In this document: positions 2,182-62,582 of the stretch, piece after piece
Position numbering within the stretch: position 1 is the first letter of the stretch
How the letters are laid out: each line of letters opens with the position of its first letter
From: Solirubrobacter pauli
Lineage (GTDB): Bacteria; Actinomycetota; Thermoleophilia; Solirubrobacterales; Solirubrobacteraceae
Reading direction: 5' to 3'
Length of the DNA: 64,000 nt
NCBI RefSeq assembly: GCF_003633755.1
Contig: NZ_RBIL01000002.1
Coordinates: forward strand, 1,240,001-1,304,000
The notes under the pieces: model-generated
Told to the model about the DNA's origin: nothing
Database searches by the model: none
Seen by the model: the letters and a program-made list of their open reading frames with translations, nothing else
Made by a program: the position numbers and the translations under genes

Positions 2182-2204
2182 CTTCCTCGACCCGAACATA
2201 CGGC

Positions 2205-2293
2205 CCACAGTCAAGGGGAAGTCCGGTGAGAGTCCGGCGCTGTCCCGCAACGGTATTGGCATCTCGACGCCTAAGCCCGATCACCTGCTGTGG
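2205..2293 (+). promoter_or_regulatory. Cobalamin (adenosylcobalamin) riboswitch aptamer
   Basis: The leader of nrdB carries the conserved cobalamin-aptamer core. GGGAAGTCCGGTGAGAGTC starts near 2216, the B12 box CTGTCCCGCAACGGT follows at 2240-2254, and AAGCCCGATCACCTGC lies at 2273-2288. A closing P1 helix can be drawn between CCACAG (2205-2210) and CTGTGG (2288-2293). The element sits about 110 bases upstream of the nrdB start, on the same strand. In Streptomyces a B12 riboswitch is known to repress class I ribonucleotide reductase when cobalamin is available for the class II enzyme; the same logic is expected here. Confidence 0.93.
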
Positions 2294-2363
2294 AGCCCGT
2301 TGGATCGTCCCTCGGTAGAAGGGCAGCCGACGCGAGCGCGCGTGTGCACAGCACGTGCGTCCT

Positions 2364-53753: not shown

Positions 53754-53845
53754 CCGCGCGCCGATGAGTTTCGCGGCGGCGCGTAGTCTCTGCGTCTAGA
53801 GGGGTGGCACCGGGGCGTGCTTCCTTCTCTCACTGGATACCGGTA

Positions 53846-56263
53846 GTGCGCCCGCTCTCCACCCCTCTCCTTGCCTTGATGGTCCGTCGCCGGCGGCTCG
53901 TGTTCCTCGAGCCCGGCGACGGGCCGGATGCGCGCACGGACGAGGTGATCGAGCGCACCGAGGCGCGCGCCGCCGAGCTCGGCTGCGTCTTCAGCGCCGG
54001 GTTGCGGGGCGCGCTCCGCGTCATCCCGTCGGTCGAGCTGGCGGGCCACGCCGACACGCTCCTCGCCCTGCTGGCCGCCGAGCGCGGCGCGCACGTGGCG
54101 CACGTCCCGCTGTTCCGCCGGTTCCCGGACACGGTGCCCGACGACACGCAGGCGCTGTACGTCGAGCGCACGCTCGCGCATGTGTTCGCCAGCCCGGAGC
54201 AGCCGTGCCTGAACTGCACGCGGATCGACGACGTGTACGTGCTCGACCCGTGCGGGCACCTGGTGTGCGCCGGCTGCTGGGACGCCACCGACTACAGCGC
54301 CTGCCCGATCTGCCACCGGCGGATCGCGCACGACAGCCCGTTCCTGCAGCCCGCCCCGCCGCGCGAGCCGCTCTGGGACCCGCGGCCGCTGACGCTGCTG
54401 GACATCGGCCGCGACCTCGACGCGACCGCCGGCGCCGAGCTCGACGTGCTCGTCCAGCGGACGAGCACGCTCGGCCCGCAGGACCGCGAGGACCTGGTGA
54501 CGCTCGTGCGCCACTGCGGCGTCGAGCGCGTCCCGGACCACATCCCCGTGCGCGAGACGATGGCGCTCGTCTTCGGGAGCTGGCTCGAGTTCGACCTCGC
54601 GCGTCCCCATCTGCGGACCGCGACCGACGTGTTGCGCGTGCTGCTCGTCGCGCTCGGCGGGGACGCGGACCTGGTGCGGGTGCCCAAGCCGCTGCCGTCG
54701 ATCCCGCGGCCGCTCCGGCGCTTCGTCCTGCAGACGCTCGAGGGCATCCCGCAGGACCAGCTCTCCGAGGACGTCCGGCGCCACGCGCGCCTGTGGAAGC
54801 GCGTGGGGGAGAAGCTGCACCCGTACGAGTTCCAGGTCCGCTACCCGAACACCGCGCTGGCCTTCGCCGCGATCCGCCGCACGCGCGTGGACGACGACTT
54901 CACCGCCGGCAGCACCGCCACCGTCAGCCGCGAGCGCGTCCGGCTGCGCACCTGGGCGACGCAGCTCGAGGAGGCGCTCGTCGCGCAGGACCTCGAGCTC
55001 GCGCTGGAGCTCGCCGCCCGGCGGCCCGGCGAGCTCGTGCGCCGCTTCGATCACCTGCTGCGCGCCGGAGCTGACCCGGCCGCCGCGCTCGACGCGCTGC
55101 GGACCGCCGCGCCGCACGTCCCCGCACCGCTGCTGCTGACCGCGATGGCCTCGCTCCGGGCGCGCACCCGGCGCCTGCCGAAGCGCGTCTTCTTCCCGCG
55201 CGGGGAGGTGACGAAGGCGTTCGCCACCGACGACGAGCGCCCGCTGCTGGACGCCGCCGTGGTCGGGCCGGCCGTCGAGGCGATCCAGGCCGAGCTGCTC
55301 GCCCGCGCGGGACGGCTGCCGCGCCACGCGGTCGCGCTGCTCGACGACGGCCTGCGCGACGTGACCGTCCCGTTCCGCGAGCGCCACAGCGCCCGCGCGC
55401 TGGTGCGCGTCCCGCGCGGCAGCCGCCTCCCGCTCCCGGACGGCGACGCGCTGCGCCTGTTCCTGCACTGGACCGAGCCGGCCGAGCAGCGCGTCGACCT
55501 CGACCTCAGCGTCGCGCTCTACGACGCCGGTTGGCGGATGCAGGGCCAGTGCGATTACACGCAGCTCAAGTTCGAGAACGGCGCCGCGCAGCACTCGGGC
55601 GACCTCACGTCCGCGCCCGCCCCGCTCGGCGCCTCGGAGTTCATCGACCTCGACCTGCCTGCCCTCCGGCGCGCCGGCGTCCGGCACGTCGTGCTGCTCG
55701 TGTTCGCCTACAACGACGTCCCGTTCGAGGCGATGACCGACGCCTTCGCCGGCTTCATGTCCCGCCGCGACGGTCGCGGCGACGTGTTCGACCCGCGCAC
55801 GGTCGAGCAGCGCTTCGACCTCCAGGGCTCCGCGAAGATCGCCGTCCCCGCCGTGCTCGACCTCGACGCCCGCACGCTGCTGTGGGCGGACGTGAACGTC
55901 CCGGCCGCGCTGCGCTTCCACAGCGTCGGCGGCTACCGCGCCGCGCTGGCCCACATCGGCCACGACCTGCACGCGTACTTCGGCGCGGGCGCGCGCCCGA
56001 CGCTGTTCGAGCTGGCCGCCATCCACGCCGCCGCGCGGGCCGACCGGGTGCTCGTCCGCGGCGCCGACGGGTCGCTGCGTGGGTTCGAGGCGGAGCCCTC
56101 ACCCGCGTTCCTGGCCGCGCTCGCCGGCCCCGGCGAGCCGGCGACGCTGCCCGACGCCGTGGGCTTCGCCGCGCTGGTCCGCGCCGACGTCCCCTTCGAC
56201 GACGGCTACGCGCTCACCGTCCCGGGGCATAGCGGCGCGGACCTCGCGGCCCGGTTGATCTAG
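53846..56263 (+). CDS. RING-finger plus TerD-domain protein (MXAN_6230/SCO0854 type)
   Basis: About 805 residues. At about 119-161 lies a bacterial RING-type finger: CLNC, then CGHLVCAGC and CPIC, giving the C-x2-C, C-x-H-x2-C-x2-C, C-x2-C spacing. The middle 350 residues are helical and unannotated. At about 530-640 is a TerD-like domain (LHWTEPAEQRVDLDLSVALYDAGWRMQGQCDYTQ, then AAQHSGDLTSAPAPLGASEFIDLDLPAL), the calcium-binding fold of tellurite and stress proteins. The combination matches the family named after MXAN_6230 and SCO0854, whose function is unknown. Starts at 53804 (GTG) or 53879 (ATG) are possible. No ubiquitin-like gene is seen nearby. Confidence 0.85.
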   Translation: MRPLSTPLLALMVRRRRLVFLEPGDGPDARTDEVIERTEARAAELGCVFSAGLRGALRVIPSVELAGHADTLLALLAAERGAHVAHVPLFRRFPDTVPDDTQALYVERTLAHVFASPEQPCLNCTRIDDVYVLDPCGHLVCAGCWDATDYSACPICHRRIAHDSPFLQPAPPREPLWDPRPLTLLDIGRDLDATAGAELDVLVQRTSTLGPQDREDLVTLVRHCGVERVPDHIPVRETMALVFGSWLEFDLARPHLRTATDVLRVLLVALGGDADLVRVPKPLPSIPRPLRRFVLQTLEGIPQDQLSEDVRRHARLWKRVGEKLHPYEFQVRYPNTALAFAAIRRTRVDDDFTAGSTATVSRERVRLRTWATQLEEALVAQDLELALELAARRPGELVRRFDHLLRAGADPAAALDALRTAAPHVPAPLLLTAMASLRARTRRLPKRVFFPRGEVTKAFATDDERPLLDAAVVGPAVEAIQAELLARAGRLPRHAVALLDDGLRDVTVPFRERHSARALVRVPRGSRLPLPDGDALRLFLHWTEPAEQRVDLDLSVALYDAGWRMQGQCDYTQLKFENGAAQHSGDLTSAPAPLGASEFIDLDLPALRRAGVRHVVLLVFAYNDVPFEAMTDAFAGFMSRRDGRGDVFDPRTVEQRFDLQGSAKIAVPAVLDLDARTLLWADVNVPAALRFHSVGGYRAALAHIGHDLHAYFGAGARPTLFELAAIHAAARADRVLVRGADGSLRGFEAEPSPAFLAALAGPGEPATLPDAVGFAALVRADVPFDDGYALTVPGHSGADLAARLI

Positions 56264-56472: not shown

Positions 56473-57336
56473 ATGAGCGGAGAAGTTTCAGTGATCGAGG
56501 GCGTGCTCCGCGAGCAGCGGGAGACGTTGCTCGCGGCGTGGGTCCAGGCGCAGCTGGCGGCGCCCGGCGTGCGCACGGACCTGATCAGCGAGAGCGAGCT
56601 GCGGGTCGAGAGCGAGCGGTTCCTGACCGCGCTCGTCGAGGGCGTGACGAACGACCCGGGCTCGGCCGACCTCATGAGCCCGCACTGGGACACCATCCGC
56701 GACCAGCTCACCGCGCTCTCGCGGTCCCGGGCGACGCGCGGGTTCTCGCCGACCGAGACGGCCACGTTCGTGTTCTCGCTCAAGAAGCCGCTGTTCGAGG
56801 CGCTCACGGAGGCGGACGGCGACACCGCCGCCACGATCTGGTCCGCGACGCAGCTGATCGACAGCCTCGGCCTGTACACGGCGGACGCGTACCTGCGCAC
56901 GCGCGAGGAGGTCATCCGCCGTCAGCAGGACGAGCTGATCGAGCTCTCGACGCCGGTCGTCAAGCTCTGGCAGGGCGTCGTGGCGCTGCCGCTGATCGGC
57001 ACGCTGGACTCGGCGCGCACGCAGGTCGTGATGGAGAGCCTGCTGCAGCGGATCGTCGAGACCGACTCCGCGATCGCGATCATCGACATCACCGGCGTCC
57101 CGACCGTGGACACGATGGTCGCCCAGCACCTGCTCAAGGCCGTCACCGCGGCGCGGCTGATGGGCGCCGACTGCATCATCAGCGGCATCCGGCCCCTGAT
57201 CGCGCAGACGATCGTGCACCTCGGGCTGGACCTGAGCGAGGTCACGACGAAGTCCAGCCTCGCCGACGCGGTGACCGTCGCCCTCGAGCGGACGGGCCAC
57301 CAGATCGTGCGGCGCAAGACGCCGGCGGCGGAGTAG
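56473..57336 (+). CDS. rsbR: RsbR-type stressosome protein (RsbRD-N + STAS)
   Basis: 287 residues. The N-terminal 150 residues are a helical RsbRD-type domain (LREQRETLLAAWVQAQLAAPGV). The C-terminal STAS domain (LSTPVVKLWQGVVALPLIGTLDSARTQVVMESLLQRI) carries the phosphorylation loops DITGVPTVDTMVAQHLLKAV and GIRPLIAQTIVHLGLDLS, with Thr at the two sites phosphorylated by RsbT in Bacillus. It is the outer sensory subunit of a stressosome. GACGAGGAGCC precedes the ATG. It is the first gene of a seven-gene operon. Confidence 0.92.
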   Translation: MSGEVSVIEGVLREQRETLLAAWVQAQLAAPGVRTDLISESELRVESERFLTALVEGVTNDPGSADLMSPHWDTIRDQLTALSRSRATRGFSPTETATFVFSLKKPLFEALTEADGDTAATIWSATQLIDSLGLYTADAYLRTREEVIRRQQDELIELSTPVVKLWQGVVALPLIGTLDSARTQVVMESLLQRIVETDSAIAIIDITGVPTVDTMVAQHLLKAVTAARLMGADCIISGIRPLIAQTIVHLGLDLSEVTTKSSLADAVTVALERTGHQIVRRKTPAAE

Positions 57337-57338
57337 CC

Positions 57339-57752
57339 GTGGACCGCGTGAACCGGATCCCGATCCTCAAGCTGGGCCACCTGCTGCTGGTGAGCATCCA
57401 GGTCGACATGCACGACCGGATGGCGCTCGCGCTGCAGGAGGACCTCGCGGAGCGGATCTCGCAGACCGGCGCCCGCGGCGTGCTGATCGACATCTCCGGC
57501 CTCGAGTTCATCGACTCGTTCATCGGCCGCATGCTGTCCGACATCGCCGGGATCGCCCGCGTGCTGGACGCCGAGACCGTCGTCGTCGGGATGCGGCCGG
57601 TCGTGGCGATCACGCTGGTGGACCTCGGCCTGACGCTTCCCGGCGTGCGCACCGCGTTGACCGTGGAGCGCGGCATGGCCATGCTCCCGCCGCCGACCGC
57701 CGACGAGGACCTCGGCGACGATGAGGAGGCGGAGGACGCTGGCGGCCGATGA
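57339..57752 (+). CDS. rsbS: RsbS-type STAS protein
   Basis: 137 residues from a GTG two bases after rsbR. The STAS domain reads IPILKLGHLLLVSIQVDMHDRMALALQEDLAERI, and the phospho-site is DISGLEFIDSFIGRML, in which the Ser of DSF corresponds to the RsbT target. A 30-residue acidic tail (PPPTADEDLGDDEEAEDAGG) is longer than in Bacillus RsbS. It forms the stressosome core with RsbR and holds RsbT. Its end overlaps rsbT by 32 bases. Confidence 0.92.
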   Translation: MDRVNRIPILKLGHLLLVSIQVDMHDRMALALQEDLAERISQTGARGVLIDISGLEFIDSFIGRMLSDIAGIARVLDAETVVVGMRPVVAITLVDLGLTLPGVRTALTVERGMAMLPPPTADEDLGDDEEAEDAGGR

Positions 57753-58137
57753 GGGCCTGCCGCTGCGCAACGACGAGGACGTCGTCCGCGCGCGTCACCG
57801 GGTCCGGGAGCTGGCGCAGCACGCCGGGCTGAGGCTCGTCGATCAGACGAAGTTCGTCACCGCGGTCTCCGAGCTGGCCCGCAACACGATCATCCATGGC
57901 GGCGGTGGCCGCCTCCACGCGGGCCTGCTCCAGGACGGGGCCCGCCAGGGCGTCTACGCGCGGTTCGAGGACGACGGACCGGGCATCCCCGACATCCAGA
58001 TGGCGCTCACCGACGGGTTCAGCACGGGCACGGGCCTCGGCCTCGGCTTCGGCGGGGCACGACGACTCGTGAACGAGTTCGAGGCTAAGCCGAACCCGAC
58101 CGGCGGCACGATCGTGCGCGTGGCCACATGGCGCTGA
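57721..58137 (+). CDS. rsbT: RsbT-type switch kinase
   Basis: 138 residues of the GHKL ATPase fold: FVTAVSELARNTIIHGGGGRLHAGL (N box with Glu and Asn), FEDDGPGIPDIQMAL (G1 box) and GFSTGTGLGLGFGGARRLVNEFE (G2). In the known system RsbT phosphorylates RsbS and RsbR and, once free, activates a phosphatase of the RsbU type. The start lies inside rsbS, in a different frame, which fits translational coupling. The next gene overlaps by 10 bases. Confidence 0.92.
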   Translation: MRRRRTLAADEGLPLRNDEDVVRARHRVRELAQHAGLRLVDQTKFVTAVSELARNTIIHGGGGRLHAGLLQDGARQGVYARFEDDGPGIPDIQMALTDGFSTGTGLGLGFGGARRLVNEFEAKPNPTGGTIVRVATWR

Positions 58138-59105
58138 CCACCCCGGTCCGCCTTCGTGTCGACGACCCCTCAGGTGTGGCTCCCGTCCGCCGCGCGGTCG
58201 AGGAGATCGCCGACGCGCTCGGCCTCGACGAGGTGCGTAGGGGCGAGGCGTCGATCGTCGTCACCGAGCTCGCGACCAACCTCATCCGCCACGCTCGCGG
58301 CGGCGAGATCGTGCTGCGCATCAACCGCGTCGGAGACGCGTCGATCGACGTGATCGCGACCGACCGCGGCCCCGGCATCCCGAACTTCGCCCGCGCCCGC
58401 GGCGACGGCTTCTCCACCGGCGGCGGCCCGGGCAACGGGCTCGGAGCGATCGGCCGGATGTCGGCCGCCATGGACGTCCACTCCGGTGCCGGGCAGGGCG
58501 CGGTCGTGCTCGCGCGGCTGGGGACCCCGGAGCCCGAGCCGCCCGTCGACGGCATCGCGCTGGCGATGGAGGGGGAGACCTCGTGTGGCGACGCGTGGGG
58601 CCACGTGGTGGACGGTGAGCAGGTCACGATCCTGCTGATGGACGGGCTCGGCCACGGCGACGACGCCGCCACCGCGGCCAACGCCGCCGTCCGCGAGCTG
58701 CGCCCCGGGCTCGATCCCAACGGGCTGCTGATGCGCATCCACGGCGCGCTGCGCGCCACGCGCGGCGCGGCCGGCGCGGTCGCCTACTGGAACCGCCGCA
58801 CGGGTGCGCTCCAGTACGCGGGCATCGGCAACATCGCGGCGTCGATCGTCGTCGCGGGCGAGTCCCGCTCGCTCGTCTCGATGCCGGGCATCCTCGGCCA
58901 CGGGATCCAGCGCCCGCGCGTGTTCGACTACGAGCTGCCGCCCGGCGGCCTGCTCGTCATGCACTCGGACGGCCTGCGCAGCGGCTGGGACCTCGCGGCC
59001 TATCCGGGCATCGTCCGCCGCGATCCGCTCGCCACCGCCGCGGTCCTCATCCGTGACTTCGAGCGCGGGCGCGATGATGTGAGCGTGGTGGTGGCGCGGG
59101 CATGA
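58128..59105 (+). CDS. ATPase plus PP2C phosphatase fusion (RsbX/RsbW-like)
   Basis: 325 residues. The N-terminal 125 residues are a GHKL ATPase (EASIVVTELATNLIRHARGGEIVL, DRGPGIPNFARAR, GGGPGNGLGAIGRM). The C-terminal 190 residues are a SpoIIE/PP2C-type phosphatase: GDAWGHVVDGEQVTILLMDGLGHGDDAATAANAAV, then MHSDGLRSGWDL, then GRDDVSVVVAR, supplying the metal-binding Asp residues. It therefore combines a kinase-like and a phosphatase domain in one chain. RsbX resets the stressosome by removing phosphates from RsbS and RsbR; this protein is placed where RsbX would be. The next gene starts in its stop (ATGA). Confidence 0.88.
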   Translation: MALTTPVRLRVDDPSGVAPVRRAVEEIADALGLDEVRRGEASIVVTELATNLIRHARGGEIVLRINRVGDASIDVIATDRGPGIPNFARARGDGFSTGGGPGNGLGAIGRMSAAMDVHSGAGQGAVVLARLGTPEPEPPVDGIALAMEGETSCGDAWGHVVDGEQVTILLMDGLGHGDDAATAANAAVRELRPGLDPNGLLMRIHGALRATRGAAGAVAYWNRRTGALQYAGIGNIAASIVVAGESRSLVSMPGILGHGIQRPRVFDYELPPGGLLVMHSDGLRSGWDLAAYPGIVRRDPLATAAVLIRDFERGRDDVSVVVARA

Positions 59106-60826
59106 ACGCCCCGATCGGCGACGAGGTCGCGCGAGTGGAGCTCGAGCACGACGAAGGGGTCGTGACCGCGCGTCAGCGCGCCCGTGACGTCGCCGAGCTG
59201 CTCGGGTTCGACCGGCTCGAGCAGACGCGGATCGCCACCGCGGTGTCCGAGCTGGCCCGCAACGCCCATCGCTACGCGGGCGGCGGCGAGGTGCGGATCC
59301 TGGCCGGGCGCGACCGGATCCGGGTGGAGGTCAGCGACGCCGGCCCGGGCATCCCGAACCTCGACGAGGTCCTGCGCGGCGAGTACACGTCGTCGACCGG
59401 CCTCGGCCGCGGGCTCGTCGGCGTGCGCCAGCTGATGGACGAGTTCGAGATCGTCGCGCCTGAGGGCCGGGGCACGCGGGTGACGGTGGTCAAGCGCCTG
59501 CCCGCGTCCGTGATCGGCCCGGACGTGCGGACGGTCCGCGCCGGCCTCGCCCGCCTCGGCGCGACGAGCCCGTTCGACGAGGTCACGCGCCAGAACGAGG
59601 AGCTGCTGCAGGCGCTGGGGGAGGTGCGGGCGCGGCAGAAGGCGATGCTCGCGCTCAACCGCGAGCTGGAGGAGACCAATACGGGCGTGGTCGCGCTGTA
59701 CGCGGAGCTCGACGAGCGCGCGGACCGCCTGCGCGACGCCGACCAGCGCAAGTCGCGCTTCCTCGCGGACATGAGCCACGAGCTGCGCACGCCGCTGAAC
59801 TCGATCATCGCGCTGGCCGAGCTCCTGCTCAGCGGCGAGCCGCCGCTGGCGCCCGAGCAGGCGACGCAGGTCGGGTTCATCCGGCGCGTCGCCCAGGACC
59901 AGCTGCAGCTCGTCGGCGATCTCCTCGACATCGCCAAGATCGAGGCCGGCCGGCTGGAGCTGGAGCTGACCGACGTCGCGCTCTCCGAGCTGCTCGTGAT
60001 CCTGCGTGGCCAGCTGCGTCCGCTGCTGCAGAGCGCGGAGGCGCAGCTGCGCTTCGACTTCCCGCGCACCGAGGTCACGCTCCGCACGGACGAGGGCAAG
60101 CTGATCCAGGTCCTGCGCAACCTGATCTCCAATGCGGTCAAGTTCACGCCGCAGGGGGAGGTGCTCGTCGGCGCGGAGCTGGAGGGCGAGCGCGTGCGCT
60201 TCACGGTCGCCGACACCGGCATCGGCATCGCCGAGAACGACCTGCCGCGGATCTTCGACGAGTTCGTGCAGGTCTCGAGCGAGCGCCAGAAGTCGCACCC
60301 GGGAACGGGCCTCGGCCTGCCGCTCGCACGCAACCTCGTCGCGCTGCTCGGGGGCGAGATGACGGTCAAGAGCACCGTCGGCGTCGGTACCGTCTTCAAC
60401 GTCGTGCTGCCGCTCGAGCGGACGGTGGCGACCCCCGACGTGGGCGACCTCGGCGGTGCGGTGCTCGTCGTCGACGACGACGCCACGTCGCGCTACGTCG
60501 TGGAGGCGCACCTGCGCGACACCGCGTGGCGGACCGTGCCGGTCGCCGGCGGCGAGGCGGCGCTGGCCGCGGTGGCGCAGAGCCTGCCGACGGCGGTCAT
60601 CCTGGACCTCTCGATGCCGGACCTCGACGGGCTGGAAGTGCTGCGGCGGATGCGGGCGGATGCCAGGATGGCGGGGGTGCCGGTGGTCATCCACACCTCA
60701 CGCCTGCTGGAGCGCTGGGAACATGAGCGCCTGCAGGCGCTGGGCGCGCACGTGCTCGACAAGTCCAGCACGTCGCGGTCGCAGCTGCTCGAGGTGCTGT
60801 CGGTGGCCACGCGGGCGCGGGCATGA
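59102..60826 (+). CDS. RsbT-like ATPase fused to histidine kinase and receiver
   Basis: 574 residues. An RsbT-like GHKL domain at about 15-135 (TAVSELARNAHRYAGGGEVRIL, VSDAGPGIPNLDEVL, GLGRGLVGVRQLMDEFE) is followed by a helical linker. HisKA carries the phospho-His in FLADMSHELRTPLNSIIALAELLL (about 220-245), then a second HATPase (NLISNAVKFTPQGEVLV, DTGIGIAENDLPRIFDEF, GTGLGLPLARNLV), and a receiver at about 455-570 (VLVVDDDATSRYVVEA, Asp in VILDLSMPDLDGLEV). It could link a two-component phosphorelay to the Ser/Thr partner switch. Both neighbours overlap by 4 bases. Confidence 0.9.
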   Translation: MNAPIGDEVARVELEHDEGVVTARQRARDVAELLGFDRLEQTRIATAVSELARNAHRYAGGGEVRILAGRDRIRVEVSDAGPGIPNLDEVLRGEYTSSTGLGRGLVGVRQLMDEFEIVAPEGRGTRVTVVKRLPASVIGPDVRTVRAGLARLGATSPFDEVTRQNEELLQALGEVRARQKAMLALNRELEETNTGVVALYAELDERADRLRDADQRKSRFLADMSHELRTPLNSIIALAELLLSGEPPLAPEQATQVGFIRRVAQDQLQLVGDLLDIAKIEAGRLELELTDVALSELLVILRGQLRPLLQSAEAQLRFDFPRTEVTLRTDEGKLIQVLRNLISNAVKFTPQGEVLVGAELEGERVRFTVADTGIGIAENDLPRIFDEFVQVSSERQKSHPGTGLGLPLARNLVALLGGEMTVKSTVGVGTVFNVVLPLERTVATPDVGDLGGAVLVVDDDATSRYVVEAHLRDTAWRTVPVAGGEAALAAVAQSLPTAVILDLSMPDLDGLEVLRRMRADARMAGVPVVIHTSRLLERWEHERLQALGAHVLDKSSTSRSQLLEVLSVATRARA

Positions 60827-62247
60827 CGCTCGAGCCCTCGATCCTGCTCGCCGACGACGACGAGGTCGGCCGTTACGTCGTGGCCACGATGCTGCGCCGG
60901 GCAGGCTTCGCGGTCACCGAGGTCGCCGACGGGCTGTCGGCGGTGTCCGCGGCGCTCGAGTCGCCGCCGGACCTGGCCGTGCTCGACGTCAAGATGCCCG
61001 GCCTGGACGGGTTCGAGGCCTGCCGGCGGATCAAGTCGCACGACGACACGCGGCACATCCCGGTGCTGATGCTGTCGGCGACGTTCATGGAGACCGAGGC
61101 CCAGGTCGAGGGCCTGGAGACCGGCGCGGACGTATACCTCACGCAGCCCGTTGAAGCGCCCGTGCTGGCGGCGACGATCCGCTCGCTGCTCCGGGCGCGC
61201 AGCCTGGAGACCGAGGTGCGGCTCGCGGCCGCCGAGTGGCGGACGACGTTCGACGCGATCTCCGACGCGGTCGCGGTGCTCGACGGCGACGGCGTGGTCG
61301 TGCGAGCGAACCGCGCGTTCCACGCCACGTTCGGCGAGGACGTCGTCGGCGCCCGCGTGCCGGCGCTGGACATCGCCCGCGACAGCGGCGAGCTCGAGCT
61401 CGAGCTCGGGGACCGGACGCACAGCCTGCGGATCGACCTCGTCCCGGACGAGATCGGCGCGGCCCCGCGCATGGTCGTGACGCTGAGCGACATCACGGCG
61501 GCCAAGCGGAGCGAGCGTGAGCGCGCCGCGGCGTTCGCGCGCGAGCAGACGATCTCCCGCACGCTGCAGCAGTCGCTGCTGCCGGAGCGGCTGCCGTCGG
61601 ACGAGCGCCTCGCGCTGCACGCGTGGCACCTCGCCGCAGAGCAGGAGCTGATCGTCGGCGGCGACTGGTACGACGTGATCGAGACGCATGACGGCCTCTG
61701 GCTCGTGATCGGCGACGTGGCCGGGCACGGCGTCGCGGCCGCCGCGCAGGCCGGCCAGCTGCGTCACTCCCTGCGCGTCTACGCGCACGAGGGCTTCGGC
61801 CTGGCCGAGTCGGTCACGCGCCTGAACGAGCTCGTCACCGGCACCGAGCTGACCGACATGGCGACGATGTGCATCCTCGCGCTGTCAACCGACGCTGACG
61901 ACGTGCGGATCGTCTCGGCGGGCCACCCGCCGCCCGTCCTGCTCCCGGCCGACGGGCCGCCACGGCTGGCGGTGACCGGGCACGGCGTCGTGCTCGGCGT
62001 GCTCGGCGCCACGTACGAGGAGCTGACGTTCACGTTCGCGCCGGGAGACCGGCTCGTGCTCTACACCGACGGGCTCGTCGAGCGGCCGGGGGAGATGATC
62101 GACGACGCGCTCCAGCGGCTCGTGGACGCCTGCGCGGACACCGCCGGCCTGGAGCCGCTGCGTGCGCATCTGTTCGCCACGCTGGTCGGGAACGAGCATC
62201 CCCGCGACGACGTCGCACTGCTGCTGGCGCAGCGGCAGGTCCTCTAA
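60823..62247 (+). CDS. Receiver-PAS-PP2C phosphatase (RsbU/RsbP-like)
   Basis: 474 residues. The receiver domain at about 5-120 has ILLADDDEVGRYVVATML and Asp in LAVLDVKMPGLDGFEA. A PAS domain (WRTTFDAISDAVAVLDGDGVVVRANRAFHATFGE) is followed by a SpoIIE-type phosphatase (LQQSLLPERLPSDERLALHAWHLAAEQELIVGGDWYDVIE, GDVAGHGVAAAAQAGQLR, LYTDGLVERPGE, RDDVALLLAQ). It is placed as the output phosphatase that would dephosphorylate an anti-sigma-factor antagonist such as the STAS protein encoded next. The upstream kinase-receiver fusion may phosphorylate its receiver. Confidence 0.92.
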   Translation: MTLEPSILLADDDEVGRYVVATMLRRAGFAVTEVADGLSAVSAALESPPDLAVLDVKMPGLDGFEACRRIKSHDDTRHIPVLMLSATFMETEAQVEGLETGADVYLTQPVEAPVLAATIRSLLRARSLETEVRLAAAEWRTTFDAISDAVAVLDGDGVVVRANRAFHATFGEDVVGARVPALDIARDSGELELELGDRTHSLRIDLVPDEIGAAPRMVVTLSDITAAKRSERERAAAFAREQTISRTLQQSLLPERLPSDERLALHAWHLAAEQELIVGGDWYDVIETHDGLWLVIGDVAGHGVAAAAQAGQLRHSLRVYAHEGFGLAESVTRLNELVTGTELTDMATMCILALSTDADDVRIVSAGHPPPVLLPADGPPRLAVTGHGVVLGVLGATYEELTFTFAPGDRLVLYTDGLVERPGEMIDDALQRLVDACADTAGLEPLRAHLFATLVGNEHPRDDVALLLAQRQVL

Positions 62248-62258
62248 GGTGGTCCGCG

Positions 62259-62582
62259 ATGAAGCCGCCGGTGTTCGAGATCGAGTCCCGCGAAGCTGAC
62301 GGCACCGTGCTTCTTGCGCTGTCCGGCGAGCTCGACCTGGCGGGCGCTCCAGAGCTCGACGCGGCGCTGTCCAGCGTCCGTGAAGCGGGCAAAGGGCTGA
62401 CGATCGACTTGTCCGAGCTCGACTTCATCGACTCCTCGGGCCTTGGCGTGCTGGTGCGCTTCCACAACGCCGCGGGCACCGCGGGCTACGAGTACTCCGT
62501 GATCGCCGGTCCGCCACCGGTCCACCGCGCGTTCGTGTTGTCGGGCCTGGATCAGGCCCTGCCGTTCGCGGCGCGCTCGTAA
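62259..62582 (+). CDS. STAS-domain anti-sigma factor antagonist
   Basis: 107 residues, a single STAS domain: LALSGELDLAGAPELDAALSSVREAGKGLTIDLSELDFIDSSGLGVLVRFHNAAG. The Ser of DSSGLG is the site phosphorylated in RsbV and SpoIIAA. It is the probable end point of the switch in this operon, releasing a sigma factor from its anti-sigma when dephosphorylated. Neither an anti-sigma protein of the simple RsbW kind nor a sigma gene is visible in the window, so its partner is elsewhere. It lies 11 bases after the phosphatase gene. Confidence 0.92.
   Translation: MKPPVFEIESREADGTVLLALSGELDLAGAPELDAALSSVREAGKGLTIDLSELDFIDSSGLGVLVRFHNAAGTAGYEYSVIAGPPPVHRAFVLSGLDQALPFAARS

What the first reader, a model, noticed from the sequence alone, without database searches (positions are those of the whole stretch)
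53846..56263. Bacterial RING finger fused to a TerD domain
RING domains are usually ubiquitin-ligase parts and are rare in bacteria. Here one sits in an 805-residue protein with a TerD-like domain and a long unannotated helical middle. It matches the uncharacterised MXAN_6230/SCO0854 family. The role could be protein tagging, metal stress or phage defence.
Basis: partly seen in the sequence, partly recalled or inferred. Interest (0 to 1): 0.6.

Follow-up and report, generated by a model that had tools for sequence, protein, structure and literature searches.

The report
RING–Ro60–TerD protein, probable RNA-handling scaffold
A bacterial protein carries a real RING zinc finger, but its long unexplained middle looks like the RNA-binding ring of Ro60, and some of its relatives sit beside RNA-repair genes, so it is more likely part of an RNA-care machine than a protein-tagging enzyme.

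Summary
The 805-residue protein at 53846-56263 (+) passes NCBIfam NF041916 (936 bits, cut-off 600) and has a complete C3HC4 RING; the eight ligands are kept in all 80 homologues examined. Its C-terminal part is a TerD domain (Z 17.0; profile E 9e-12) that Pfam misses. The "unannotated middle" is, by AlphaFold2 comparison, a Ro60/TROVE-like toroid: Ro60 entries are the only matches over Z 6 besides TerD-type ones that cover 300 or more residues, for the window protein (Z up to 8.4) and for a RING-less phage relative (up to 11.7). Sequence profiles do not see it.

Neighbours of some relatives point to RNA repair: one RING-bearing gene abuts an RlaP gene; a half-RING relative in Variovorax is divergent from rtcR behind a sigma-54 site; phage relatives sit by RlaP, RtcB or tRNA arrays. 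This is rare among RING-bearing loci and absent around the window gene.

Ubiquitin ligase is not supported: UQ_con E2 in 2 of 34 carriers, linchpin Arg/Lys in 3 of 80.

Most likely an RNA-binding scaffold for RNA repair or decay, the RING a zinc-stabilised docking module. The family is known; my searches listed no experiment on it.

The parts
53846..56263 (+). RING–TROVE-like–TerD gene (805 aa, GTG start; a GTG start at 53804 gives 819 aa)
   Evidence: NF041916 936 bits
53861..54184 (+). N-terminal helical region, residues 6-113, shared with RING-less relatives
   Evidence: AF2 model; alignment
54206..54343 (+). C3HC4 RING, residues 121-166; ligands C121 C124 C136 H138 C141 C144 C153 C156
   Evidence: Pfam PF14447; 80 of 80 examined homologues; pLDDT about 62-84 over residues 111-180
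54413..55315 (+). helical toroid, residues 190-490, Ro60/TROVE-like
   Evidence: VIA-align Z up to 8.4 over 194-805; phage relative Z up to 11.7; 12 of 33 positions conserved at 90% or more are basic
55400..55969 (+). TerD domain, residues 519-708
   Evidence: Z 17.0 with 3ibz; hhalign E 9.2e-12
55970..56260 (+). C-terminal alpha/beta tail, residues 709-805; inside the range aligned to the end of Ro60; no position conserved at 90% after residue 700

Best explanation
The protein is a remote, RING-bearing relative of the Ro60/TROVE RNA-binding proteins with a TerD domain fused in. Its helical toroid holds a structured or damaged RNA (tRNA or a tRNA-like small RNA is the best guess), the TerD domain adds a ligand- or partner-binding face, and the RING is a zinc-stabilised protein-docking module that brings a processing enzyme (nucleotidyltransferase, ligase or 3'-5' exonuclease) to the RNA. 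Shown here: the RING ligands, the TerD fold and profile, the Ro60-like fold in two predicted models, and the RNA-repair neighbours of some relatives. Inferred: RNA binding, the kind of RNA, the role of the RING and the role of TerD.
For: Fold: for the window model (pLDDT 90.6, pTM 0.90), after the TerD-type rows come six Ro60/TROVE entries, Z 6.3-8.4 over 347-366 residues; the next row has Z 5.8 over 53 residues. For a RING-less phage relative folded with its own alignment (pLDDT 89.2), three Ro60 entries have Z 10.8-11.7 over 302-335 residues; the next row has Z 6.5 over 56. Context: in Nonomuraea dietziae (L098) a GTG that can start a gene matching PF10127 RlaP, 'RNA repair pathway' (E 8.5e-31), overlaps the stop of the RING gene (start codon chosen by me). 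RlaP genes also lie 288, 505 and 1408 bp from the relatives in phages RpAliso, RcXuper and XacN1. Variovorax plasmid relative: divergent from a four-gene stretch that includes rtcR, with sigma-54 type site TGGCACGGGCATTGC 57 nt before its ATG (0.08 expected in the locus, 15 of 200 shuffles had one), the layout described for rsr-yrlBA-rtcBA in Salmonella (PMC9879122 passages; PMC7790460 passages). Weasels2 relative: RtcB 3.2 kb away. In RcXuper, RpAliso and Weasels2, 25 of 28, 26 of 30 and 9 of 10 tRNAs lie within 10 kb of the gene. In 33 of 80 RING loci, all Streptomyces, an exonuclease gene was found downstream (first downstream gene in 23 by my gene calls; RNase_T plus BRCT by Pfam in the one tested). 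TROVE and TerD genes lie within 4 kb of each other in 6 of 7 genomes of one unnamed genus (g85, taken to be Streptomyces) found with TROVE and checked by position.
Against: No sequence-level link to TROVE: Pfam TROVE matched 0 of 40 members, hhalign against 7 TROVE proteins gave 0.0-0.1%, and Foldseek's first 50 rows show no Ro60. The aligner warns that Z under about 13 can be a common arrangement for helical repeats. RlaP was found in 1 of 80 RING loci; RtcB, RtcR and RNA-ligase seeds in 0 of 80; the canonical-TROVE seed in 0 of 80. The RtcB seed was a 210-residue piece, and flanks are at most 8 kb. In the window the neighbours are a YkcB-like mannosyltransferase and an RsbR/SpoIIE signalling set, not RNA genes. 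In Mycobacterium phage WXIN 0 of 2 tRNAs lie within 10 kb, and 13 of 31 non-redundant viral loci have no tRNA. RtcB was found in 2 of 37 viral and phage records. No Rfam match lies near the gene.
Confidence: 0.57

Rival explanations
1. It is a bacterial ubiquitin-like E3 ligase: the RING recruits an E2 and the rest selects substrates.
For: All eight zinc ligands are kept in 80 of 80; best sequence relatives are CBL and IAP RINGs; the residue before the second Cys is Leu in 64 of 80, as an E2-contacting RING would have (the E2-contact rule is recalled). Two ThiF/E1-like proteins over the cut-off and one weak match exist in the genome, a common finding in bacteria (12 of 14 control genomes rang).
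Against: UQ_con E2 not found in the own genome; partial matches over the cut-off in 2 of 34 carriers, neither at the RING gene's position (0 of 14 controls rang). Linchpin Arg/Lys in 3 of 80; the window itself has Asn at the E2-contact position and His at the linchpin. Flanks were not searched with ubiquitin-system models; among the annotated regions read the one such gene I saw is a Mov34/MPN/PAD-1 gene about 6 kb from the Hymenobacter relative. RING-less relatives are common. The Prok-E2_B search was silent in the own genome and in all controls, so it tells nothing.
Confidence: 0.1
2. It is a Ter-type stress protein: TerD senses a metal or small ligand and the RING is an oligomerisation clip; RNA is not involved.
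For: TerD fold and profile are clear; a TerB-family gene lies 1.8 kb from the Deinococcus KNUC1210 relative; an RsbR/SpoIIE stress-signalling set follows the gene here.
Against: Pfam TerD finds nothing in this genome (it does not see the window's own TerD part, so divergent ones would be missed); the acidic GDGDDE loop of TerD reads G-A-S-E here; it leaves the Ro60-like toroid and RNA-repair neighbours unexplained.
Confidence: 0.17
3. It is an anti-phage or phage-conflict protein acting on tRNA breakage, host and phage using versions of one protein against each other.
For: 41 viral contigs and 14 phage records (some are duplicates and some match over the TerD part only) hold relatives; phage copies sit by tRNA arrays, RlaP or RNA ligases in part of the cases; published work reads such phage genes as repair of RNAs cut by host RNases (PMC7824862 passages).
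Against: No defence-family match; the window was not searched for a defence island beyond this gene's neighbours.
Confidence: 0.15

Closest known systems
NCBIfam NF041916 (MXAN_6230/SCO0854 family RING domain-containing protein)
   Same: Passes the curated cut-off over residues 10-791.
   Different: Nothing defining; a full member. The family has no tested function that I could find (MXAN_6230 and SCO0854: 0 papers each).
Prok-RING_4 (PF14447), Burroughs, Iyer and Aravind 2011
   Same: RING matched end to end. From memory, the Pfam text already describes RING fused to ROT/TROVE-like repeats and TerD and suggests an RNA-processing complex; the 2011 paper is not held, so this is recalled, not checked.
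   Different: Added here: fold evidence, RNA-repair neighbours of some relatives, phage and one-zinc relatives, an E2 survey.
Ro60/Rsr (TROVE) RNA-binding proteins
   Same: Helical toroid and C-terminal end align over 302-366 residues in two models; one relative sits opposite rtcR, as rsr does in Salmonella.
   Different: No TROVE profile match; no vWA MIDAS (D-x-S-x-S), which this genome's own canonical TROVE has; extra RING and TerD; no Y RNA found in the window.
TerD (PF02342)
   Same: Fold Z 17.0 and profile E 9e-12.
   Different: Below Pfam's reach in the window protein; acidic loop altered; fused into a large protein.
CBL/IAP-type RING E3 ligases
   Same: C3HC4 order and PCGH-type signature.
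   Different: Linchpin Arg/Lys in 3 of 80; UQ_con E2 match in 2 of 34 carriers.

Membership tests
NF041916 | score over 600 bits | tested here: met
   936 bits
RING finger (C3HC4) | eight zinc ligands in order and spacing | tested here: met
   80 of 80 examined homologues
RING finger (C3HC4) | binds two zinc ions | not testable with these tools
   needs metal analysis or a structure
RING E3 ubiquitin ligase | hydrophobic E2-contact residue before the second Cys (recalled) | tested here: not met
   Asn in the window; Leu in 64 of 80, Asn in 9 of 80
RING E3 ubiquitin ligase | linchpin Arg/Lys after the last Cys (recalled) | tested here: not met
   His in the window; Arg in 3 of 80, Lys in 0
RING E3 ubiquitin ligase | an E2 in the genome | tested here: inconclusive
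   UQ_con not found in the own genome, 2 of 34 carriers; Prok-E2_B search silent in all controls; other E2 families not searched
RING E3 ubiquitin ligase | transfers a ubiquitin-like protein | not testable with these tools
   biochemistry
TerD | TerD beta-sandwich fold | tested here: met
   Z 17.0, rmsd 2.5, 157 residues
TerD | sequence profile relationship | tested here: met
   hhalign 97.4%, E 9.2e-12; no Pfam TerD match in the window protein
TerD | calcium-binding acidic loop (recalled) | tested here: inconclusive
   GDGDDE of TerD against GASE here; D551, D553, D586 and E598 kept
TROVE/Ro60 | HEAT-like toroid fold | tested here: met
   Z 8.4 (window) and 11.7 (phage relative), over 300 residues and more; still below the aligner's caution level of about 13 for helical repeats
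TROVE/Ro60 | Pfam TROVE match | tested here: not met
   0 of 40 members; hhalign not significant
TROVE/Ro60 | vWA MIDAS D-x-S-x-S | tested here: not met
   not seen in the window protein after residue 480 (read from the sequence); 12 of 113 rows of A2 hold such a string somewhere after that point; canonical TROVE of this genome has DVSGS
TROVE/Ro60 | partner Y RNA | tested here: inconclusive
   no Rfam Y RNA in the window; bacterial Y RNAs may be poorly covered

The most novel reading that the evidence does not exclude
RING–Ro60–TerD is a second, uncharacterised lineage of Ro60-type ribonucleoprotein used by bacteria and large phages for broken tRNA. Phages carry the bare toroid–TerD form, in part inside tRNA arrays next to RlaP or RtcB. 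Some bacteria place it under RtcR/sigma-54 in the position of rsr or couple it to RlaP. One clade has a full two-zinc RING as an enzyme-docking module, other branches a one-zinc half of it.
Probability: 0.4. Interest if true: 0.72.

Novelty: new member of a known kind. Interest (0 to 1): 0.5.

Why it matters
Ro60 proteins are a long-standing puzzle of RNA quality control, and bacterial ones have been studied in few species. A sister lineage that reaches from soil actinobacteria and myxobacteria to large phages, with ties to RtcR, RtcB and RlaP in some members, would make the question 'what does Ro60 do in RNA repair' testable in new hosts. It would also explain a set of bacterial RING proteins without calling on ubiquitin.

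Tried and rejected
Ubiquitin context: ThiF gave two strong hits and one weak; Prok-E2_B was silent also in all controls, so it tells nothing; UQ_con gave partial matches in 2 of 34 carriers and 0 of 14 controls. Conserved operon: none seen across genera in 80 loci with my own rough gene calls; only local ones (a mannosyltransferase-like gene upstream and an RsbR set in Solirubrobacter, an exonuclease in Streptomyces, a large glutamate-synthase-like gene, named by eye, in some deltaproteobacterial MAGs). TROVE by sequence: not found. TROVE co-occurrence: 18 of 30 RING carriers have a canonical TROVE, against 8 of 198 in a phylum sample that itself holds carriers; confounded by relatedness, so not used. 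CCA-adding enzyme close to phage relatives: 15 of 37 records have one; combined p 0.0035, but the contigs are related, the genes lie from 0.7 to 283 kb away, and in RcXuper and RpAliso the adjacent gene is RlaP while the CCA gene is about 97-99 kb away; weak. Sigma-54 pattern elsewhere: present in 22 of 278 loci at scattered places, so the Variovorax site rests on its position and rtcR, not on rarity. An RtcR-model hit in L254 was set aside as a probable other sigma-54 activator, untested. One RING plasmid locus has an RNB ribonuclease about 1 kb away on the other strand; of four other Streptomycetaceae plasmid loci read, one (L183) names a nuclease-related-domain gene about 1.9 kb away and three (L280-L282) name no RNA gene. 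MoxR or AAA ATPase and vWA genes recur near relatives and were not followed. The viral structure library gave four full-length phage proteins with no Ro60 or RING name, PHROGs gave families of unknown function, and Rfam with ARAGORN found no small RNA beside the Variovorax or Vibrio relatives. The 10 paper searches listed no experiment on this family, as far as titles and abstract beginnings show.
Full report
What is there. The window lies in what is most likely a Solirubrobacter genome: the nearest named homologues are Solirubrobacter phytolaccae (84% identity) and relatives (position). The frame 53846-56263 (+) codes for 805 residues. It passes NCBIfam NF041916 with 936 bits against 600. Pfam sees only the RING (PF14447, E 8.7e-17, residues 121-166, and weaker RING models).

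RING. The eight ligands C121, C124, C136, H138, C141, C144, C153 and C156 are kept in 80 of 80 named homologues, the best 80 of 514 from a capped genome scan. The best solved relatives by sequence are CBL RINGs (E 4.3e-5; profile search: 1.4e-5). The features recalled for E2 engagement are weaker: the residue before the second Cys is Leu in 64, Asn in 9 (the residue of the window protein), Trp in 4, Val in 2 and Met in 1 of 80; the residue after the last Cys is His in 55, Leu in 15, Glu in 5, Arg in 3, Met in 1 and Gln in 1. The RING zone is among the least confident parts of the model (pLDDT about 62-84).

TerD. Pfam does not call it in the window protein, and in 40 members TerD appears weakly in 4. 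Profile-profile comparison with eight TerD sequences gives 97.4%, E 9.2e-12 over residues 517-673. The model matches TerD 3ibz with Z 17.0, rmsd 2.5 over 157 residues.

The middle. AlphaFold2 on 113 sequences gave pLDDT 90.6 and pTM 0.90. Among 951 chains aligned, after the TerD-type rows come six Ro60/TROVE entries (2nvo 8.4, 9kop 8.4, 9l5y 8.1, 9nep 7.6, 9nen 7.2, 9nf8 6.3), each over 347-366 residues spanning the model from residue 178-194 to its end; the next row has Z 5.8 over 53 residues. A phage relative without RING (L127), folded from a 41-sequence alignment (pLDDT 89.2), gives Ro60 entries at Z 11.7, 10.9 and 10.8 over 302-335 residues, the next being 6.5 over 56. Against this: no TROVE match by Pfam in 40 members, no hhalign signal, no Ro60 in Foldseek's first 50 rows, and the aligner's own caution about helical repeats. 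I take the fold as likely and the homology as remote. TerD lies inside the stretch aligned to Ro60, before its end, so it may be an insertion in the C-terminal domain (inference); the vWA metal motif of Ro60 is missing. Of 33 toroid positions conserved at 90% or more, 12 are basic and 5 acidic, as an RNA-binding surface could be.

With and without RING. Relatives without a full RING are widespread: 41 of 41 viral contigs, and four actinobacterial and four further genomes, the latter from the phylum of a Myxococcales MAG (13 of 21 stretches with a relative have the full RING, 8 do not). In a tree of 67 sequences of my choice with the RING columns masked, the 27 full-RING proteins form one clade with support 0.988. 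Variovorax, Vibrio, Hymenobacter and two viral proteins keep only the C-x-H/C...C-x-x-C half, the second zinc site, and Deinococcus KNUC1210 looks similar by eye. Four of these form a clade (0.969). So in this sample the full RING belongs to one bacterial branch, and a one-zinc form exists elsewhere; which came first is not settled. The E2-facing features are thus not what the wider family keeps.

Neighbours of relatives. In Nonomuraea dietziae, a RING-bearing member, a GTG that can start an RlaP gene overlaps the stop of the RING gene (GTGA; PF10127 E 8.5e-31; other starts were not excluded). RlaP is described as an RNA-ligase-associated nucleotidyltransferase that works beside RNA ligases (PMC7824862, passage read). 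In phages RpAliso, RcXuper and XacN1 the relative lies 288, 505 and 1408 bp from an RlaP gene; the first two group closely in the tree, so they are not independent. In Rhodococcus phage Weasels2 RtcB is 3.2 kb away; RtcB was found in 2 of 37 viral and phage records. In RcXuper, RpAliso and Weasels2 the gene lies in or beside the tRNA array (25 of 28, 26 of 30 and 9 of 10 tRNAs within 10 kb), but not in WXIN (0 of 2). Of 31 non-redundant viral loci, 18 have a tRNA within the 8-14 kb held (counted without the duplicates dropped), 4 an RNA ligase within 5 kb and 3 a CCA-adding enzyme within 2.5 kb (the seeds came partly from these loci). No control count of tRNAs in the rest of those contigs was made. 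On four nearly identical Variovorax plasmids (one was read) the half-RING relative is divergent from a gene set that includes rtcR, and TGGCACGGGCATTGC, a sigma-54 type site, ends 57 nt before its ATG. That is the layout of the Salmonella rsr-yrlBA-rtcBA operon, whose first gene is the Ro60 homologue (PMC9879122 and PMC7790460, passages read). In 33 of 80 RING loci, all Streptomyces, an exonuclease gene was found downstream (RNase_T plus BRCT by Pfam in the one tested); this may be one inherited arrangement.

Limits of the context argument. RlaP was found in 1 of 80 RING-bearing named loci and in 0 of 21 further stretches that hold a relative; RtcB, RtcR and RNA-ligase seeds in 0 of 80, the TROVE seed in 0 of 80. 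In this genome the neighbours are a YkcB-like mannosyltransferase upstream and an RsbR-type, SpoIIE and histidine-kinase set downstream. The RNA link for the window protein therefore comes through its fold and its relatives, not its own neighbourhood.

Ubiquitin question. A UQ_con E2 was not found in the own genome; 2 of 34 carriers have a partial match over the cut-off, and none of 14 control genomes rang. Two ThiF proteins are present, as in most bacteria. Other E2 families were not settled.

Distribution. NF041916 over its cut-off: 5 of 101 genomes among the relatives, the own genome included and all in its genus; 4 of 396 in a phylum sample, the own genome included; 10 of 282 in the phylum of a Myxococcales carrier, that carrier included. 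It is rare and patchy.

Verdict. An ordinary, full member of a known but, as far as I found, untested family. From memory, the Pfam text for PF14447 already names ROT/TROVE-like repeats, TerD and an RNA-processing role; I could not check it, so I do not claim the architecture as new.

Noticed in passing
window 56473-62579: A run of stress-signalling genes follows: RsbRD-type STAS protein, HATPase, HATPase-SpoIIE, hybrid histidine kinase, receiver-PAS-SpoIIE phosphatase and a STAS protein.
   Followed up: partly
window 2191-2306: Cobalamin riboswitch, 38 bits.
   Followed up: no
L277 6724-6974 (own genome, contig C1): Two tRNA genes (Arg gcg, Asp gtc) lie just upstream of this genome's canonical TROVE gene; the open frame of the TROVE gene runs back over them.
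   Followed up: partly
   Followed up: partly
G036 C1 about 1004025-1005945 (L006, L011): A RING-less relative in the same family as the window's genome is split over two frames, 443 and 679 aa; a broken gene or a sequencing error.
   Followed up: no
G005 C11 286576-287058 (L007): A genome of the same genus matches only over profile positions 289-458, in a 351-aa frame.
   Followed up: no
L191 15891-17627 (Hymenobacter volaticus plasmid): A Mov34/MPN/PAD-1 family gene lies about 6 kb from the half-RING relative.
   Followed up: no
L193, L279, L280: vWA protein genes, with MoxR or AAA ATPase genes in two of the three, lie within about 1-5 kb of relatives in Deinococcus QL22 and two Streptomyces plasmids.
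   Followed up: no
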